From contig NZ_KB903283.1 of assembly GCF_000379685.1 (NCBI RefSeq), positions 62,001 through 126,000 of the forward strand: a stretch of 64,000 nt of DNA, in the 5' to 3' direction. The notes beneath the pieces were generated by a model, which was given only the letters and a program-made list of their open reading frames with translations, searched no databases and was not told the DNA's origin. The DNA comes from Catelliglobosispora koreensis DSM 44566 (GTDB lineage: Bacteria > Actinomycetota > Actinomycetes > Mycobacteriales > Micromonosporaceae). Shown here in pieces: positions 37,140-45,354 of this stretch. Position 1 is the first letter of the stretch. The number at the start of each line of letters is the position of its first letter. Both the position numbers and the translations under genes were made by a program.

Positions 37140-39854
37140 CTATGACGGGTCGGCGTGGGCTAGGAGTTCGGTGGCACGCGCTTGGCCGAGCTGCTGGCCG
37201 GTTTCGGTATGCAGGGCTAGTGCTTCCCTGCCCGTGCTGGCCGCTTCGGCCGTGTTGCCGTCGGCGAGTTGTGCCCAGGCGAGGGTGGTGAGGCTCCTGG
37301 CCTCCAGCAGCCGCAGCTGTGCCGTGCGGGACACCTGCAACGCTTGCGCCGCATGCTGTTTGGCTTGTGCTGTGGCGCCTTTACTGCGGCAGATGTCGGC
37401 CAGGGCGATCAGCGCATTGATCTCGCTGCGTTTGTAGCCCTCGTTCCTGGCGATGCGCAATCCTTGCAGCACTTGCTCTTCGGCCCCCTCGGCACCGGTG
37501 AGGTGCATGGCCGCGCCCTGGGTGCCGCACACGTCGCTTTCGACGCGCAGGTCACCGAGATCCCGCACGATAGGCATGGCAGTGGCACAGAGCTCCAGCG
37601 CTCGCTTGGGCTTGCCGGATTCCACATACATCGCGGCGAGGTCTTCGAGCATGCTGGCCACGCCTGGCCGGTCTCCCACCCGCGCGTAGATGTCGTGTGC
37701 CGTTTGCACGCATTCGATGGCTTCATTCAGGTGACCCTGGAACCGCAGCACACTTCCCAGCCGCGCGACCGCGTCAGCGTATTGGTAGTCATTGCCGGTC
37801 TGCTGGTGCCAGGCGATCGCTTGCTGGAGATGCTGTTTGGCGTCTTCGAGTTTGCCCAAGTCGCGCTGCAGCGAGCCAAGCCGGGCAAGGCCGGTGGCCT
37901 GCCTGGCCTTGTCGCCGAGCTCGCCATAGGCGGTGACTGCTTTGGTAAGCCACTCATCTGCCAGAATCAGATCGCCGATTTCGAAGGCGGTTAAGCCAAG
38001 GTTGCTCATCACAGCAGCGGCCCGCCGCCGGTCTCCGGTGCGCAGGCTCTGCTGCAGGGCTAATCGGAAATGGCTGATGGCCCCGGCGAAGTCATTGTCC
38101 GCCCATGCCGCATCGCCCAGGCAGGCCCACATCGCGGCCTCCGCGGCCGGGTCTTCGGCTTGCTGCGCCGCTTCCAGTCCCGTTGTCGCGGCCGTGAACC
38201 ATTCCGCTTTGGGGACGCGAAGGGTGAAGTAGCCGCGCAGGGCATCGGCGAGCAGCCATGTGTAGTGGCGCAACCCTTGCGTGGCGCCAGCGGTGCGGAC
38301 CGCTTCGACCAGGTTGGCTAGTTCCACGTCGAGCCATTGACGGGCGCTCGCGGTGTCAGCGAAAGTTAGCGCCGGCACGCCGGGGTGGGAGTGTGCTGGC
38401 AGCCGGATGAGGTTGGGGCGGATCATTTCTACGGCGTTGACGGCCGTGTCGAGATACCACTGGAGCAGGTTTTCCCGGATCTTGGAGGAATCTGGTTCGT
38501 GTTCGGCGGCAAGCGATTGCGCGAACACCATCAGCAGGTCGTGCAGCGCGAACCGATTCGGCCCGGCCACCTCGATGAGATGGCTGGCGGCAAGCACTTG
38601 CAACTCGGCGAGTGCTTGCTCGCGGCCGGACCCGAGCAGCGCCGCCGCGGTGTCGACGGAGAAGTTGGTTCCGGGCAACAAGCCTAGGAGCCGGAACAGC
38701 CTCTGGCTCGCCGGTGACAGCCGGTCGTAGGAGGTCGCGAAGACAGCCCGGACCGCTGTCTCACTGTCGTCCTCAACGGACAGTGCGCCTAGTCTGTCGC
38801 CGTCTTCGAGCTCATCGGCGTACCCATTGATGGTCCTGTGTGGATGATCGACGAGATTGGCGGCCGCGACGCGCAGAGCGAGCGGCAGGTAGCCACACAA
38901 CCGGGCCAGCCTGCTCGCGCCGCGCTCGTCCTGCATGACCCGTTCGGGCCCGAGACCAAGCGAGAGCAGTTGCATCGCCTCGGCATCGTCGAGCCCGCCG
39001 AGCACGAGCCTGCTGGCGCCCTCCCGGGCGACAAGGCCACTTAACATTTGCCGGCTCGTGACCACGGCCAGGCACGACTGTCCGCCCGGCAGCAGTGGCC
39101 GCACTTGCGCGGCGTCGGCCGCGTTGTCGAGCACGATCAGCATGCGCTGGTGGGACAGGATCGACCGGTAAAGCGCTCCTTGCGCCTGCACGTCGGTGGG
39201 GATGTGCTGGCTGGACACGTTGAGGCCACGCAACAGGGTGGTCAGCGCTTGCTCGACCGTCACCTGTGGCCGGCTGGAGAACCCGTCCAGGTTCAGATAA
39301 AGCTGGCCGTCGGGGAACACCCCGGCCTTCTGCTGCGCCCACCGCACCGCCATCGCGGTCTTACCCATCCCGCCGGGGCCACAGATCACGGCCACGCCAG
39401 CGCTGCCGGGCGGGTTTTCCAGCCACGCTTCCAGCATGGTGTCGAGCTGTTTGAGCTCGCCTTCGCGGCCAACGAACCACATTCCGGGCGCGGGAAGCTG
39501 CCGCGGCACTTGCACTGGTGCTGACGGAGCGGAGGCAGCGGCGGCCGGGCCTGGGTGGTCTTGCAGTCTGCGCCACGCGACCGTCCACTTCGTCACCTCC
39601 TCCGGCGGGCAGCCACAGGCCGAAACCAGTCGCCTGAGCATGTCTAGGGGAGGCAAGCCCGTTCGCTTGCCGGTCAGGCAGTCGTGCAGCGTTGTTCGTC
39701 CAACACCGGTGCGTTTGGCGAGCACCGCCAAAGACGGATTACCGGCCCACACACGCAAAGTGCGCAGCAGCTGCATGAATTCGGCGGCGGACGCCGCCAC
39801 TGTCGGGTCGGGCCGCTTGGAATACCGGTCAGTTTGACTGAGGTCCTGCGGCAT
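37140..39854 (-). CDS. STAND regulator: HTH, NB-ARC ATPase and TPR repeats
   Basis: A 904-residue AfsR-like signal-transduction ATPase without the SARP activator part. An N-terminal helix-turn-helix (residues about 25-95, FMQLLRTLRVWAGNPSLAVLAKRTGVGRTTLHDCLTGKRTGLP) is followed by an NB-ARC domain from about 125: FVGREGELKQLD, P-loop VAVICGPGGMGKTAMAVRWA, Walker B RMLIVLDNAADAAQV and sensor CLAVVTSRQ. The last 400 residues are TPR repeats (DLGKLEDAKQHLQQAIAWHQQTGN and others). ATG 39854 has a GGGAGGA site; TTG 39857 is also open. It probably switches on ligand binding and acts on DNA; its target is unknown. Confidence 0.9.
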   Translation of the reverse strand: MPQDLSQTDRYSKRPDPTVAASAAEFMQLLRTLRVWAGNPSLAVLAKRTGVGRTTLHDCLTGKRTGLPPLDMLRRLVSACGCPPEEVTKWTVAWRRLQDHPGPAAAASAPSAPVQVPRQLPAPGMWFVGREGELKQLDTMLEAWLENPPGSAGVAVICGPGGMGKTAMAVRWAQQKAGVFPDGQLYLNLDGFSSRPQVTVEQALTTLLRGLNVSSQHIPTDVQAQGALYRSILSHQRMLIVLDNAADAAQVRPLLPGGQSCLAVVTSRQMLSGLVAREGASRLVLGGLDDAEAMQLLSLGLGPERVMQDERGASRLARLCGYLPLALRVAAANLVDHPHRTINGYADELEDGDRLGALSVEDDSETAVRAVFATSYDRLSPASQRLFRLLGLLPGTNFSVDTAAALLGSGREQALAELQVLAASHLIEVAGPNRFALHDLLMVFAQSLAAEHEPDSSKIRENLLQWYLDTAVNAVEMIRPNLIRLPAHSHPGVPALTFADTASARQWLDVELANLVEAVRTAGATQGLRHYTWLLADALRGYFTLRVPKAEWFTAATTGLEAAQQAEDPAAEAAMWACLGDAAWADNDFAGAISHFRLALQQSLRTGDRRRAAAVMSNLGLTAFEIGDLILADEWLTKAVTAYGELGDKARQATGLARLGSLQRDLGKLEDAKQHLQQAIAWHQQTGNDYQYADAVARLGSVLRFQGHLNEAIECVQTAHDIYARVGDRPGVASMLEDLAAMYVESGKPKRALELCATAMPIVRDLGDLRVESDVCGTQGAAMHLTGAEGAEEQVLQGLRIARNEGYKRSEINALIALADICRSKGATAQAKQHAAQALQVSRTAQLRLLEARSLTTLAWAQLADGNTAEAASTGREALALHTETGQQLGQARATELLAHADPS

Positions 39855-40051
39855 CAATCGTCCTCCCGCGCACGCTGTGTGACATCAATATAGTCAAGCC
39901 GCACGAGGACCATTGCCGCGTAAGCCGCTGAAAGGTCCTTATTGGACACGATTGCCGTTCGGGATCGTCCGGATTCGTTCAGCCGCGTTGCCGGCCAGCT
40001 GAGCACAACCGAAGATGAGCACACTGGTCAACATCGTTTCGGGGGGCAGAT

Positions 40052-40343: not shown

Positions 40344-41198
40344 TCAGTCCTTTGGCTTGCGGGCACCGATGAGCAGGCCCAGCACACCGCCGACGGCAAG
40401 GACGATCACGGCGTACTTGAGCTTGTCCGCGTTGGTGAGCAACGCGTCCGCGGCCGCGCCGTCGGGCGTGGTCGACGACAGGACTTTGCCGCCCAGGTGG
40501 CCGAGTCCTTCGGTGGCCAGCAAGTAGATGCCAGACAGCGCACCGGTGATGCCGAACCAGAACACGGGCGGGTTTTCCGGGCGCAGCCACCGGACGGAGT
40601 GCATCGCGGCTAGCAAGCCAGCGACGATGGGCTGCAACAGAAGGAACCGCGACTCGGCCGTCGCCTGCGCCGCCTCTGTCGCGTTAGGACCGCCGCCCAG
40701 GAGCAGCAGCAAATTCGTCTTGAGCACAGACAGGATCAGCCCGGCGAAAAGCACCCAGGTCATCGCCCACAAGCTTGAGTCGATCATCGGCCCGGGCAGC
40801 ATCGCGAACACGCCACCGAGCACGCACGCCGCCGCGACCGTAATGCTGAGCATGGTGACCGAGGCGCCTGGGCCATAGGCGAACCGGACCCCGATCGCGG
40901 TCACGACGCCGAACGCGGCACCGGCCGCCAGGCCAATGAACAGGCGCCCCAGCGCACTCGCGGCCCGGGAACTGGCGGCAGCGGCGATCGACGCCGCGGT
41001 GACGAGCGAGGTGCTGATCACGTCAGGCATCGCTTCGATCGCTGACTCCAGCGGGCCCGGCGCTCCTTTCACCCCATTGATCGAAGCGTATGCGGTGAAG
41101 ACCGTAATACCGAGCCAAAGCAGTCCAAGGTAGACCTCAGTCTTGGTGCCTGTGCTTTCTTTCGGCGTTTCCACTTCCGTCAGGGTGTCGTCGGCCAC
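40344..41198 (-). CDS. multi-spanning membrane protein next to TIR-like receptor
   Basis: A protein of about 284 residues with eight or so hydrophobic segments (VYLGLLWLGITVFTAYAS, LFIGLAAGAAFGVVTAIGV, LSITVAAACVLGGVFAML, SSLWAMTWVLFAGLILSVLK, KYAVIVLAVGGVLGLLIGA). The N-terminus is hydrophilic and Thr/Glu-rich (DTLTEVETPKESTGTKTE). I do not recognise the family. The start is uncertain: GTG 41198 gives the shortest sensible protein, while the frame stays open to 41498 through non-conserved sequence that would overlap the upstream gene. It follows the large TIR-like gene on the same strand. Confidence 0.65.
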   Translation of the reverse strand: MADDTLTEVETPKESTGTKTEVYLGLLWLGITVFTAYASINGVKGAPGPLESAIEAMPDVISTSLVTAASIAAAASSRAASALGRLFIGLAAGAAFGVVTAIGVRFAYGPGASVTMLSITVAAACVLGGVFAMLPGPMIDSSLWAMTWVLFAGLILSVLKTNLLLLLGGGPNATEAAQATAESRFLLLQPIVAGLLAAMHSVRWLRPENPPVFWFGITGALSGIYLLATEGLGHLGGKVLSSTTPDGAAADALLTNADKLKYAVIVLAVGGVLGLLIGARKPKD

Positions 41199-41367
41199 GT
41201 CATGTCCAAAAAGGTCGAGGGGATCAGAGGCTGGCGATATTACGCTGCGTTGTTCGTGTACCGGTGCTTGACTCCCACCGGGAAGAATTCGGGGTCGCCA
41301 AAGGGACGCACTATTGAGTACGGTCTGCCCCGACATAGTCCCGAACTTGGACAAGCCACGGTTTCCG

Positions 41368-44088
41368 TTAGCTCGGGTCACTACTTGGCAGCGCTTTGGA
41401 TTCTGGTTGTTCGGGCCAGGCGTTGCTGACGTAGTGCGCCGCTTCCGCCAGTGCAGTCGCGTAGGACCAGTCGTCCTTAGTCGTTGCGCCCCAGGCATGC
41501 CAGCCTTCGGTGGGATGGTGGACTAGTACCTGAACTCCTTCAGGTATCCAGTCTTGTGCCAGGGCCGTGAAAAGGGGGCGGTGCCGGCTCGCCTCGATGC
41601 GGAACCTGTGCCACGCAGCCATAAGGCGGGGTTTTGTCGGTTGCCAGGTGCGGCGCCTAAGCAACGAATGCTTGGGAAGGTCTGGCGGGACGACAATCAT
41701 GACCCGCTGGTGGCCGATCTTTCTCTCGTCCGCGACAATCTCGAGCTCTGTGCGCAGCCCGTCGCCAATCTTCTCTGGTGTGCCGAGAAAGACGACGGCC
41801 CTTGCCCGTTGGGCGAGAGCCGTGACGTGCTCCACCCAGTCGCTGTCTGCGTAGCTTGTCACAGACGGTCCAATGGGTGCCAGCGTCCGGCCTGGGGCGA
41901 CCGCGACCACTGGTCCCAGGACAGATAGCTGGCGAGCGAGCAGTTGGACAAACGGCTGGGGCGGATCGAGGGAAAGCGGGTAAAACACCGACGCGAGTAG
42001 GCCAGCGCGGGCAACCCGGGATGGCGGCGTGTAAATGTTGTCGTCATCAAAATCACGTAACAGCAGCACCGGTGGCCGATCGTCGATCTCCAATCGTTCT
42101 TCCAGCCGGATGGCGCCGGTGCGCCGGCCCCACCGCACCCCTAGGATCGCAACTGTGGGACCTATTGGCAGTAGGGCGATCGCAGGAATCCCCGCCATCT
42201 GTACCCAAGCGAATAGGTCTACGAGCCACATAAGCGGCAGCGAGGCGGCAGCTGGAAGCCGCTCACCCAGCCATTGCTCGATCTGCGTAGCCCGGAACGA
42301 GGCGGGGCCTCCGCCGGTGTACACCCACACCGATGACATCCACACAGCGCAAAGCACGAATCCCAGAATTACAGCGACACATGACATGGCAATACCTCGC
42401 GCCCGACGCGGCGTCAGCGATACCCTGTCCATCCGCGCCCGGACCTTCCAGGTAACGGGCGGCCTAACACGCCGATGGCTTCCGAACCCGCCCACGAGCA
42501 ACACGCCACCGACTGCAGCAAGGACCGCCGACCAACCTAAGGAAATCGCGACCAGCTTGGCGAAACCAAGCGTCCCAGCGACTGCCATCCCCAGCCCGGC
42601 TACTGCAACAGCTGCACTGGCCTGCCCATAGCGATTCATGAGTTTCGCCCCGTACGTATCGGTACTTATGTCGTGCCAGTGGGGGTGCCCGGACTCCACC
42701 AAATACCAGGCACTCAGGCGCCGCCGTATATAGGCGTCCACCACAACATTGGCAGTAAGGGCGACAAGGATGGAAAGACCGCAGATCAACCAGAACCATT
42801 CGGCCGGACGCGGTGTGACGACCCGGCCACCCAGCCGCCGGCCGATATCGACCACTGCACTACGGCTCAGTGCCGCGCAGTCCACTGCGGACAGTTCACC
42901 GCACTGGGCACCAACGACGATCAGCAATTTCTGCTGTCCCCAGACCCGCACATGCCCATCACCAGCAATGCCCAGCGGCAGGGCAAAGTCGGTACCCGGC
43001 ATGATCACGCCACCCGTCGGCACTCCATTGGCGGGACCGGCAGGAGCGACCGCGATCCGGCGCATGATTTCATCCACGTCATTGTCGTCCTGGCAGGTCC
43101 ACCATTGCACGAAGAGCAGGCTGACCTGAGGTGACGACCAGCCTAGCGAGCTGCTCATGCAGCCCGCCCAGTCAGCACGATCCGTGTCTGCCCAAATGAA
43201 AGGTACAGGGCGGGCAATCCATTCTTGCTGCGGCACAAGGGAACCAGGACGCCACAGGTGCAGCACCTCGTACGCCGCCCGCTTCGTTTCGTCCCCTTCG
43301 GACTTTGCGCAACAGGGCGCGCTGAACCTCACCGGGTCACCGTCGAAACCGACAAGTGGGGCCGGAGCCGGAGTGGGTTCACCGTTCAATGCATTAGCGA
43401 TATGCCGGACCACTATCGTGGACAAGCCGTAGCAAGCGGTCAGCCCCGTTCGATCGATGGGACATTCGGTCACCACCGCCATCGCCCACCCGTCCTGTAT
43501 CCAGTAACGGGTGTGGCGCTTCTCGCTGTCCTGCACCACGATGTCTGCAGCGCCGGACAGCGCGGCTGGAATTTGGCGCCAGCGTGCTGGCATCGTCTGG
43601 CGGAGCCGGTTCAGTATGTCGGAAAGAGTCGCGAGCTGGGCGGGAGAACACCTGTAGGCCTTCAGCCCGAACACCACACCGTCAGTTCGCCGCCACGACC
43701 GCCAGGCGCCAGCACACAGACTCGCAATCGTGTCTTTGCCGTTGCCAGCCGCCGCCCAACTACTCCCGAGCGGTTGCGCCGGTGTCCATGACTGCAGCGC
43801 AGCCGGGAACTCCTCGCCGGTAGCAGCAGCCGCGTCATCGTTAAACGGCGCCAGGATCAAAACCCCAGCCAGACACACGGCCACTACGGCCAGCCATCTC
43901 GGCCAATCAAGTGTACGAAAGCGCAGGCGCCGCCGAAACGCAGATCGGCCTGCCCGATCATCGACGCCTTGGTTCACTCGGCGATTCTTGCAAGGACTCA
44001 AGCATGTCCCGCATAGACGTTCGTACCAATCTATTCCCCTCGATAGGCCCGATTCAGGAACCGCCCTGTCAGTACACGATGCGATCAA
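41368..44088 (-). CDS. large membrane protein with ectodomain and C-terminal TIR-like domain
   Basis: A 906-residue protein. It has a basic N-terminus, one membrane helix (WLAVVAVCLAGVLILAPF, near 65), an outside region to about residue 430 rich in Cys and Trp, about six membrane helices (WFWLICGLSILVALTANVVV onward), and a cytoplasmic C-terminal domain from about 671. That domain reads PVLLLRDFDDD, then FVQLLARQLSVLGPVVAVA, SDWVEHVTALAQRARAVVFLGT and GLRTELEIVADE, then VMIVVPPD. The order of strands and helices, and the Glu at about 781, match a TIR fold, where that Glu is catalytic in NADase TIRs. The assignment is by eye. The true start may be a later GTG. Confidence 0.6.
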   Translation of the reverse strand: MIASCTDRAVPESGLSRGIDWYERLCGTCLSPCKNRRVNQGVDDRAGRSAFRRRLRFRTLDWPRWLAVVAVCLAGVLILAPFNDDAAAATGEEFPAALQSWTPAQPLGSSWAAAGNGKDTIASLCAGAWRSWRRTDGVVFGLKAYRCSPAQLATLSDILNRLRQTMPARWRQIPAALSGAADIVVQDSEKRHTRYWIQDGWAMAVVTECPIDRTGLTACYGLSTIVVRHIANALNGEPTPAPAPLVGFDGDPVRFSAPCCAKSEGDETKRAAYEVLHLWRPGSLVPQQEWIARPVPFIWADTDRADWAGCMSSSLGWSSPQVSLLFVQWWTCQDDNDVDEIMRRIAVAPAGPANGVPTGGVIMPGTDFALPLGIAGDGHVRVWGQQKLLIVVGAQCGELSAVDCAALSRSAVVDIGRRLGGRVVTPRPAEWFWLICGLSILVALTANVVVDAYIRRRLSAWYLVESGHPHWHDISTDTYGAKLMNRYGQASAAVAVAGLGMAVAGTLGFAKLVAISLGWSAVLAAVGGVLLVGGFGSHRRVRPPVTWKVRARMDRVSLTPRRARGIAMSCVAVILGFVLCAVWMSSVWVYTGGGPASFRATQIEQWLGERLPAAASLPLMWLVDLFAWVQMAGIPAIALLPIGPTVAILGVRWGRRTGAIRLEERLEIDDRPPVLLLRDFDDDNIYTPPSRVARAGLLASVFYPLSLDPPQPFVQLLARQLSVLGPVVAVAPGRTLAPIGPSVTSYADSDWVEHVTALAQRARAVVFLGTPEKIGDGLRTELEIVADERKIGHQRVMIVVPPDLPKHSLLRRRTWQPTKPRLMAAWHRFRIEASRHRPLFTALAQDWIPEGVQVLVHHPTEGWHAWGATTKDDWSYATALAEAAHYVSNAWPEQPESKALPSSDPS

Positions 44089-44162: not shown

Positions 44163-45278
44163 GTGACCGCCGGTCTCGCGGCAGGAGCGCCGGCCCTGGG
44201 CATGTGCACTCCAGCCCCGCCCAGCACCCGCGAATGCGCGCTGTTCGTGACCACGGCCGCCGGCCTGTCCGTGCTCGCCGAAAGCGACAACGTGATCACC
44301 GGGCCGGTCGCGGTCACAGCGTCCACTCCGGACTTCAGCCACTGCGTGACGGCCGAAGCGGCCGGCGCCGGCACCAAGGTAAGCGTCCGCGACCTGGCGA
44401 CTGGCCAGGTGCACGCGGAAAGTGTCCTAACAGGTCAGCTTGAGCCCCGGATCGTTTCCCCTGACGCAAACTGGTCGCCCTGGTGACCCCTGGCGGCGCG
44501 GGTATCCATGGGCTGCACGATCCACGCGGCCGTGAACGGACCGTTATCGTGATCTGCGGCCCCGGCGGCGAGCGCACGCGGATGGATCTGCCGGGCAACA
44601 TTGAGCCCGAGGCGTTTAGCCCTGACGGCGCCAGCCTGTTCGTGCTGAACTACTTTCCGCCCTCGGCACCGAACCGGTACCACGCCGAGATGATCGATCT
44701 GCACACACACGACATGGAACCGGTGCCGGGCACCGAGCAGACAACGGCAAGCCGTGTCGTGCGCCTCGCCGATGAACACCAAGGCATCCTGTTCTCCATC
44801 TGCACCGACACCGCCGCGTTTGTTGACTGCCTCAACCTGTGTGAAGGCTGGACCCGGCGCATCGCGTTGCCGCCGCCGTTCGGACAGGGCCGCCCAGGTG
44901 CGCACGGTGCCGCATTGTCGCCATCTGGCAACCGGTTGAGTGTCTTTCACTCGCTGTCTGGCACGGTCGCCGACATCGACCCCAGGAGCCTGGCCATCAA
45001 AAGCACCTGGCAGCTGGGGCCGGCTGGGCAAGCCGGTGTGCTCATCACGCCGCAGCGCAGCACCATCGCCGGAGTTGACGGAAAATTCTCCTCTCCAGCC
45101 CCTATCGCGAGATCGGCACGCCTGGGCAAATCCGTGGCCTCGCCCTGGGCACCGACGGCGACGTGTGGGCTGGCCACCCGAAGGTGTCGTCAACTACGAC
45201 CTGGCCACGGGGGCAGAACTACGTCGTATCACCATTCCCGGCCTATTCGTGCTCAAGCACTGCGCAGGGTCCCACTAA
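44163..45278 (+). pseudogene. beta-propeller (YVTN-like) protein broken by three single-base deletions
   Basis: Four reading-frame pieces form one protein. Piece 1 from GTG 44163 ends with KVSVRDLATGQVHAESVLTGQLEPRIVSPD. Piece 2 resumes with KLVALVTPGGAGIHGLHDPRGRERTVIV and runs through MDLPGNIEPEAFSPDGASLFVLNY to GAALSPSGNRLSVFHSLSGTVADIDP. Piece 3 follows near 45085 and reads ILLSSPYREIGTPGQIRGLALG. Piece 4, from 45180, is EGVVNYDLATGAELRRITIPGLFVLKHCAGSH and a stop. Each junction (about 44466, 45085 and 45180) is one missing base, and the three losses together restore the original frame. The SPDG and DLATG repeats identify propeller blades. Confidence 0.85.
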
Positions 45279-45354
45279 ACGACCATTGGCACGTATGCTG
45301 AGCCACAGTCCGAAGTCCTTCCCTTTTGGACATTCACCTGGAGTAGGGAGGAAC

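What the first reader, a model, noticed from the sequence alone, without database searches (positions are those of the whole stretch)
40344..44088. Toll-like membrane module: ectodomain, membrane helices and a TIR-like cytoplasmic domain
The larger protein has an outside domain of about 350 residues, six or so membrane helices and a C-terminal domain whose strand-helix order and Glu (about residue 781, in GLRTELEIVADE) match TIR folds. A receptor of this layout with a polytopic membrane neighbour could be a sensing or phage-defence system. A hand count of 42601-42660 gives about 33 G/C in 60 bases, lower than nearby genes, so transfer is possible.
Basis: partly seen in the sequence, partly recalled or inferred. 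Interest (0 to 1): 0.7.

Follow-up and report, generated by a model that had tools for sequence, protein, structure and literature searches.

The report
Membrane receptor with TIR-like enzyme domain
This bacterial membrane protein carries a probable sensor outside the cell and, inside, a domain shaped like the NAD- or nucleotide-cutting enzymes used in immune signalling; it belongs to a widespread family without an entry in the protein-family libraries searched, but nothing yet shows that it fights viruses, and its neighbour gene does not look like its partner.

Summary
The 906-codon minus-strand frame (41368-44088) encodes an anchor helix, a Cys-rich ectodomain of about 350 residues, a membrane bundle and a cytoplasmic domain with Glu781. 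That domain has no usable Pfam, NCBIfam or PADLOC match. A codon-pattern scan found it in 64 more loci across many bacterial phyla; 62 of 62 assessable ones have membrane helices before it. Glu781 is invariant in 60 of 60 aligned rows. AlphaFold models of the window domain (pLDDT 75) and of a typical relative (pLDDT 85) best match the nucleoside-deoxyribosyltransferase/TIR superfamily: DNPH1 Z 9.0 and 11.2, TIR domains up to 8.3 and 9.8. Foldseek alone was not significant. So "TIR-like" is right at superfamily level; TIR proper against DNPH1/NDT type is open.

The ectodomain is probably a tandem duplication. The window domain forms a supported clade (99/90) with three actinobacterial proteins that also have an N-terminal extracytoplasmic part. 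GC3 is the lowest of 32 window frames. The "pair" is not supported: gene 2 relatives occur in 66 of 150 family genomes, TIR-like matches in 4 of 150, side by side only here. No defence context was seen. Activity and sensing are inferred.

The parts
41368..44088 (-). membrane-anchored TIR/NDT-like protein, open frame of 906 codons (TTG start as listed; true start may be a later GTG/TTG)
43840..43896 (-). N-terminal anchor helix, residues 65-83, preceded by an Arg-rich stretch
   Evidence: Kyte-Doolittle, 19 residues
42796..43839 (-). predicted extracytoplasmic domain, residues 84-431, 10 Cys
   Evidence: side of the membrane inferred from the positive-inside rule and the Cys content
43384..43728 (-). 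ectodomain unit A (about residues 121-235), C125-x6-W-x14-C147 then C209, C219
42829..43173 (-). ectodomain unit B (about residues 306-420), C310-x6-W-x14-C332 then C396, C404
42136..42795 (-). membrane bundle, residues 432-651, about five helices
   Evidence: number of crossings inferred
41404..42111 (-). cytoplasmic TIR/NDT-like domain, about residues 660-895, LRxFxDD ... GP ... W ... GLxxE
41746..41748 (-). Glu781 codon, invariant in 60 of 60 aligned rows; candidate catalytic residue
   Evidence: catalytic role inferred
40344..41336 (-). gene 2: polytopic membrane protein (ATG at 41336 taken as the upstream limit; homology in close relatives begins at about 41192-41240); widespread separate family, no sign of partnership

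Best explanation
The large gene encodes a membrane-anchored signalling protein whose cytoplasmic domain has the TIR / nucleoside-deoxyribosyltransferase (NDT) fold and the invariant Glu expected of an N-glycohydrolase. Shown here: the layout by hydropathy, the family, the superfamily-level fold model, the conservation of Glu781, and a probable duplicated Cys-bearing unit in the ectodomain. Inferred: the ectodomain (or the membrane bundle) senses an envelope or extracellular cue and clusters the cytoplasmic domains, which then cleave NAD+ or another nucleotide to make an ADP-ribose-type signal or to deplete the cofactor. It most likely works as a single gene, without gene 2.
For: AlphaFold model of the window domain (pLDDT 75.0, pTM 0.76): alternating strands and helices, Glu781 (model residue 134) in the helix 129-139 that follows the strand 117-121. 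VIA-align: DNPH1 Z 9.0 (3.0 A, 124 aligned), RPS4/RRS1 TIR 8.3, RPPT-TIR 8.3, TIR-STING 7.6, MyD88 TIR 7.0. A typical relative (L095; pLDDT 85.2, pTM 0.83): DNPH1 11.2 (2.9 A, 135 aligned), MilB 9.9, SPARTA TIR-APAZ 9.8, SfSTING 9.6, NDT 8.9, RRS1 TIR 8.2, TLR15 TIR 8.0; 41 of the 45 highest rows are NDT/DNPH1/MilB or TIR entries, many of them the same protein. Profile-profile: family against 28 TIR_2 sequences, score 21.4, 0 of 200 column-shuffled controls reach it (largest 17.1), against 14.1 for flavodoxin and 10.0 for a two-sequence NDT set. Conservation: G725, W751 and E781 60 of 60, columns outside the search pattern. Membrane helix before the domain in 62 of 62 assessable relatives, median distance 22 residues. 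Window, L002, L029 and L052, all with helix - extracytoplasmic stretch - helices - domain (L029 cut at its N-terminus, so its first helix is not seen), form one clade, support 99/90. C-x6-W-x14-C twice in the window, 185 residues apart, and once in L002.
Against: Foldseek gave no match at E <= 0.001 for either model; its best rows are unrelated (a HAD-like hydrolase, E 5e-3; a CoA racemase, E 1.5e-2). For the window model, TIR rows are interleaved with other folds (Rv0376c homologue Z 8.0, HMW1C glycosyltransferase 7.5). hhalign probability for TIR is only 6-12%, over about 50 columns, and does not reach the Glu. The window protein has Thr780 where 59 of 60 rows have Trp next to the Glu and a long branch (1.76): a divergent, possibly less active member. 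No activity, ligand or phenotype is known. The ectodomain motif was picked after seeing it. Alignment of ectodomain pieces is weak: shuffles reach the score in 7 of 500 (window halves), 32 and 10 of 500 (halves A and B against L002), 0 of 500 (A against L052), and there is no signal for B against L052 (257), A or B against L029 (238, 280), or L002 against L052 or L029 (361, 406).
Confidence: 0.5

Rival explanations
1. NDT/DNPH1-type nucleotide N-glycosidase on the membrane: the domain hydrolyses or transfers the base of (deoxy)nucleotides rather than NAD+, in envelope-linked nucleotide metabolism or stress control, not immunity.
For: DNPH1 and MilB (CMP N-glycosidase) rank above every TIR in the typical member, Z 11.2 and 9.9 against 9.8 for the best TIR row (MilB and TIR are tied); the Glu motif G-L-x-x-E resembles G-T-x-x-E of the NDT sequence L151. 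The 9 of 10 scanned neighbours with a Pfam match are metabolic, transport, regulatory or peptidase genes.
Against: Sequence profile prefers TIR to the NDT set, which held only two sequences. The Asp after the first strand resembles TIR box 1 (motif from recall). Membrane anchoring in 62 of 62 is unusual for NDTs (recall).
Confidence: 0.25
2. A pseudo-enzyme scaffold: the TIR/NDT-like domain only self-associates or binds a nucleotide, and signals by protein contact as animal TLR TIR domains do.
For: The window member has lost the family Trp next to the Glu; many animal TIRs signal without catalysis (recall).
Against: Glu781 is invariant in 60 of 60 rows, which a pure scaffold would not need.
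Confidence: 0.15
3. An abortive-infection phage-defence receptor, possibly acting with a STAND protein.
For: Sporadic distribution (4 of 150 genomes of the family), lowest GC3 in the window, plasmid copies in Streptomyces and Embleya, a HTH/NB-ARC/TPR gene two genes downstream and one close to two of three copies in G074.
Against: No PADLOC match for the protein or for 65 family domains; 10 scanned neighbours show no defence family; no phage record matched two family domains; no clear recurrent partner among the neighbour clusters viewed (short stretches only); relatives of the STAND gene are common (157 matches in G074, 38 in G000), so proximity is weak and was noticed after the fact.
Confidence: 0.1

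Closest known systems
TIR-domain NADases of bacteria (SPARTA TIR-APAZ, SfSTING/TIR-STING, Thoeris ThsB)
   Same: Predicted fold class; Glu in a comparable place; weak but above-control profile similarity
   Different: No Pfam TIR match (one of 60 members at E 0.05); LRxFxDD and GPVxAxGxPGE motifs; anchored behind membrane helices; no known partner. Thoeris was not compared directly
DNPH1 / MilB / nucleoside 2'-deoxyribosyltransferases (DRHyd class)
   Same: Best structural matches, Z up to 11.2; G-x-x-x-E motif around the Glu
   Different: Those chains are about 120-160 residues and soluble (recall); no Pfam match to their family
DUF4062 'Swarozyc' TIR-like NADases (PMC13174449; abstract, sections 5 and 8 and found passages seen)
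   Same: Precedent: a family of unknown function between TIR and NDT, with a conserved Glu, reported by its authors to be NADases in phage defence
   Different: No DUF4062 match here; a search of that paper's main text for 'membrane' gave 0
Animal Toll and Toll-like receptors (survey PMC7075850, found passages seen)
   Same: Ectodomain - membrane - cytoplasmic TIR-like domain
   Different: TLRs are single-span with leucine-rich repeats; here about six helices and a probable duplicated Cys unit with no LRR match

Membership tests
TIR/NDT/SLOG class of Rossmannoid domains | parallel strand-helix fold matching solved TIR or NDT structures | tested here: met
   VIA-align Z 9.0 (window) and 11.2 (typical member) with TIR/NDT rows at the top; Foldseek alone not significant
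TIR domain (Pfam TIR, TIR_2) | match to a curated TIR model | tested here: not met
   no TIR hit for the window protein at E <= 1 and for its C-terminal part at E <= 5; 1 of 60 family members hits TIR_2, E 0.05
TIR domain (Pfam TIR, TIR_2) | remote profile similarity to TIR above controls | tested here: inconclusive
   score 21.4, 0 of 200 shuffles reach it, but probability 8% and 50 columns only
TIR NADase | invariant Glu in the helix after the third core strand | tested here: met
   Glu781 60 of 60, in helix 129-139 after strand 117-121 of the model; superposition on a catalytic Glu not seen residue by residue
TIR NADase | NAD+ cleavage | not testable with these tools
   needs an assay
NDT / DNPH1 family | match to Nuc_deoxyrib_tr (PF05014) or related Pfam model | tested here: not met
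   no hit at E <= 5 for the window C-terminal part and at E <= 0.1 for 60 members
DUF4062 (Swarozyc) family | match to the Pfam DUF4062 model | tested here: not met
   not among the hits
Toll-like receptor | leucine-rich-repeat ectodomain | tested here: not met
   no LRR model at E <= 1
Toll-like receptor | single transmembrane span | tested here: not met
   about six helices by hydropathy
Known anti-phage system | match to a PADLOC model | tested here: not met
   no match for the protein or gene 2 at E <= 1, nor for 65 family domains at E <= 0.1
Two-gene module with gene 2 | conserved co-occurrence side by side | tested here: not met
   66 of 150 genomes have gene 2 matches, 4 of 150 the TIR-like profile, side by side only in the window; no match to the window protein at E <= 1e-10 in the 8 gene 2 loci compared

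The most novel reading that the evidence does not exclude
An uncurated, phylum-crossing family of membrane-anchored TIR/NDT-type enzymes, one actinobacterial clade of which (window, L002, L029, L052) carries extracytoplasmic sensor domains: true bacterial counterparts of Toll-like receptors that turn an outside cue into an NAD-derived signal in one polypeptide.
Probability: 0.3. Interest if true: 0.8.

Novelty: new variant of a known kind. Interest (0 to 1): 0.55.

Why it matters
Bacterial TIR domains as usually described are soluble and sense intracellular events (recall). A large family in which a TIR/NDT-type domain follows membrane helices (62 of 62 assessable loci), in one clade below an extracytoplasmic domain, would make outside-in NAD signalling in bacteria directly testable and would extend the parallel between bacterial and animal innate immunity to the receptor layout. 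The family has no model in the Pfam, NCBIfam or PADLOC copies searched here, so its members are likely to stay annotated as hypothetical (two annotated copies seen here are called 'transferase' and 'hypothetical protein').

Tried and rejected
Gene pair: not supported. Synteny around gene 2: the 8 loci compared show no close match to the window's other genes; at 28-38% identity, ABC-transporter permease frames hit three of them (L113, L114, L118), a HTH/NB-ARC/TPR relative one (L116), and further frames hit L115, L116, L118 and L119 (26-41%) and L120 (57% over 135 residues of the GntR/aminotransferase frame), which I take as common gene families.

Recurrent partner: 76 stretches, mostly 3-12 kb, were clustered by their frames; I viewed the 25 largest clusters of 64 with three or more loci, and those holding a window frame, many of them antisense frames or Lentzea clade synteny. 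A HTH/NB-ARC/TPR cluster spans 5 of 76 stretches (window, L008, L100, L098, L102; the last two are probably one place). Left as a lead, given the density of such genes.

Matches discarded as chance: L003, L005, L006. L016 (G026, E 9e-4) reads by eye like a divergent member but is not used; L190 and L191 (E about 2e-4) were not inspected.

Pattern scan: of 80 stretches (77 genome contigs + 3 viral contigs), 64 were kept; 16 were dropped: L027, L036, L045 and L070 look real but are cut short or frame-shifted, the other 12 look like chance. The motif check passed 62 of 64; L029 and L076 failed the expression but show the motifs by eye. A4 holds 59 of the 64 (L059, L061, L066, L082, L086 left out as short); A5 holds all 64. 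PV, LRxF and DD columns are conserved by construction. L095 is the plasmid copy of L010, and L098 is probably the same place as L102. Many source records are metagenome bins, so single phylum labels may be wrong.

The tree used 62 of 66 rows (four under 150 residues dropped); the four-member group was named before it, partly from visible similarity of the domain, so its clustering is not independent evidence that ectodomain and domain evolve together.

Sequence search of solved structures gave only de novo TIM barrels over short stretches, taken as noise. L129 and L152 were dropped from the control alignments because they came out in a wrong frame; L147, L154-L157, L175-L178 and L184-L187 were not used. 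Folds absent from the VIA lists are not taken as excluded.

Literature: the listings of searches showed no paper recognisably on this family; of the papers listed only PMC13174449 (abstract, two sections, passages) and PMC7075850, PMC9503650 and PMC7159879 (passages) were opened; the library lacks most subscription papers.
Full report
What is there. The larger one runs 906 codons on the minus strand and has one match, itself, in its genome. Hydropathy shows an anchor helix at residues 65-83, a stretch of about 350 residues with ten cysteines, a membrane bundle from 432 to 651, and a C-terminal part without clear helices except a peak at 713-731 inside the modelled domain. The Arg-rich segments before helix 1 and between helices in the bundle fit an ectodomain outside and a C-terminus inside (inference). 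Gene 2 is probably shorter than the listed frame: its close relatives align only from about residue 87-103, so the two genes need not overlap.

The family. The whole protein has no Pfam match of weight (best DUF350, E 0.03, in the membrane part), and none in NCBIfam or PADLOC. Besides itself, only one real relative appeared in 150 genomes of the family with the single sequence: L002, 646 aa, aligned over window residues 626-903 at 29% identity. Its domain led to plasmid copies in Streptomyces and Embleya. A codon pattern for PV[LI][YFL]LRxFxDD then hit 77 genome and 3 viral stretches, of which 64 carry the rest of the domain. By record titles they span Actinomycetota, Planctomycetes, Verrucomicrobia, Acidobacteria, Pseudomonadota and others, many as metagenome bins. 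Among 60 members the best Pfam E-value is 0.026, each of eight families hit by one member, one of them TIR_2 at 0.05; 65 members have no PADLOC match and one stray NCBIfam match. Apart from the search pattern itself, Gly725, Trp751 and Glu781 are invariant in 60 of 60 rows. All 62 relatives with at least 60 residues upstream have a predicted membrane helix before the domain, 61 of them within 60 residues, median 22. The family is sporadic: profile matches in 4 of 150 genomes of the family (own genome included, one at E 9e-4) and 4 of 396 of the phylum (own included, two weak and not inspected); only up to 22 and 7 first-look candidates per genome were scored, so these are lower bounds.

The fold. 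The window domain, modelled with 60 sequences, gives pLDDT 75 and pTM 0.76; VIA-align ranks DNPH1 (Z 9.0) and plant TIRs (8.3) first, then TIR-STING (7.6) and MyD88 (7.0) mixed with unrelated folds at 7.5-8.0. A typical member, modelled with 65 sequences, gives pLDDT 85 and pTM 0.83 and DNPH1 11.2, MilB 9.9, SPARTA TIR 9.8, SfSTING 9.6, NDT 8.9, RRS1 TIR 8.2 and TLR15 TIR 8.0; 41 of the top 45 rows are of this class, many of them DNPH1 entries. The tool states a background best Z of 7-8 for models without a clear match, so the second result stands above it. Foldseek by itself was not significant in either case. Profile comparison with 28 TIR_2 sequences from genomes of the order scored 21.4, above all 200 column-shuffled versions (maximum 17.1) and above flavodoxin and NDT controls, but over only 50 columns and at 8% probability. 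I therefore call the domain TIR/NDT-like: the class is well supported, the choice between TIR and NDT is not. A published survey groups TIR, DrHyd and SLOG domains as one class and ascribes NAD+ or nucleotide chemistry to its members (PMC9503650, passages).

The ectodomain and its clade. Window residues 125-147 and 310-332 share C-x6-W-x14-C, 185 residues apart, each followed by a second Cys pair at similar spacing (C209/C219, C396/C404); L002 has the motif once. In 20,000 shuffles of the ectodomain none had two copies, but the motif was chosen after seeing it. Local alignment of the two halves is reached by 7 of 500 shuffles; half A against the L052 stretch by 0 of 500; other pairs with the window are weak or without signal. 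A tandem duplication is the most likely reading; homology of the ectodomain across the clade is not shown. In a tree of 62 domains the window, L002, L029 and L052 form one clade (99/90), with the window closest to L002 (99/90) but on a long branch. L052 and L029 add, after a further helix, a C-terminal stretch that reads like a beta-propeller (by eye).

Surroundings. Ten neighbouring frames were scanned: sugar ABC transporter parts, a GH35 beta-galactosidase, a GntR/aminotransferase regulator, an M64 peptidase, an alpha/beta hydrolase, and one frame (44483-45301) without a match. A HTH-NB-ARC-TPR regulator lies two genes downstream. That type has 38 matches in this genome and 157 in G074, so its presence near three TIR-like genes (window, two of three in G074) is a lead at most. 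GC3 of the gene is the lowest of 32 frames, which fits recent acquisition.

The pair. Gene 2 matches are found in 66 of 150 family genomes, own included, six others at 63-75% identity; four of the 150 matched the TIR-like profile. Three of these four (own, G074, G026) have both genes, but side by side only in the window, and with gene 2 in 44% of genomes that overlap says little. The 8 loci around the best gene 2 relatives contain no match to the window protein at E <= 1e-10.

Mechanism. I commit to a membrane receptor-enzyme: outside cue, clustering, Glu-dependent cleavage of NAD+ or a related nucleotide inside. Shown: family, fold class, invariant Glu, hydropathy layout. Inferred: topology, sensing, clustering, substrate. 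A caution specific to this copy is Thr780, where 59 of 60 rows have Trp beside the Glu. A precedent for a TIR/NDT-like family of unknown function proving to be NADases is DUF4062 (PMC13174449, abstract and sections 5 and 8).

Verdict. A real, coherent protein and an uncurated family of membrane-anchored TIR/NDT-like domains; Toll-like in layout, not shown to be so in function; no support for a two-gene defence module.

Noticed in passing
genome of the window (G000), whole: 23 matches to TIR_2 (PF13676), the most of the 61 genomes searched; one genus of the same order (g290) has 12-17 per genome.
   Followed up: no
window 44163-45301 (+): Beta-propeller-like coding sequence (by eye) seems spread over at least two frames (44163-44486, 44483-45301 and the start of the 45163 frame): possible frameshift or decayed gene beside the receptor. 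No Pfam match for 44483-45301.
   Followed up: partly
window 40344-41336 (-): Gene 2 belongs to a polytopic family without a Pfam match, found in 66 of 150 family genomes and conserved at 63-75% in six others; function unknown.
   Followed up: partly
L052 and L029, C-terminal parts: TIR-like proteins of Propionibacterium and Tessaracoccus continue after a further helix into a propeller-like stretch (by eye), which would give a two-sided receptor.
   Followed up: no
L015, minus-strand frame of about 412 codons: Next to a TIR-like gene of G074 lies a second, divergent protein with FVLFLRGF ... GLHAELAMIE, apparently a distant relative without obvious membrane helices (by eye).
   Followed up: no
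L016 (G026): A 491-codon frame with LFLRRFGYGD ... NVVWEVEVM and hydrophobic stretches: probably a very divergent family member.
   Followed up: no
window 37140-39857 (-); L100 2829-5525; L102 3616-5640: HTH/NB-ARC/TPR (AfsR-like) genes close to TIR-like genes in the window and at two of three G074 loci; background density is high.
   Followed up: partly
L019, L020: Two IMG/VR contigs carry the domain and group with alphaproteobacterial copies; whether they are viral or mis-sorted bacterial DNA was not checked.
   Followed up: no
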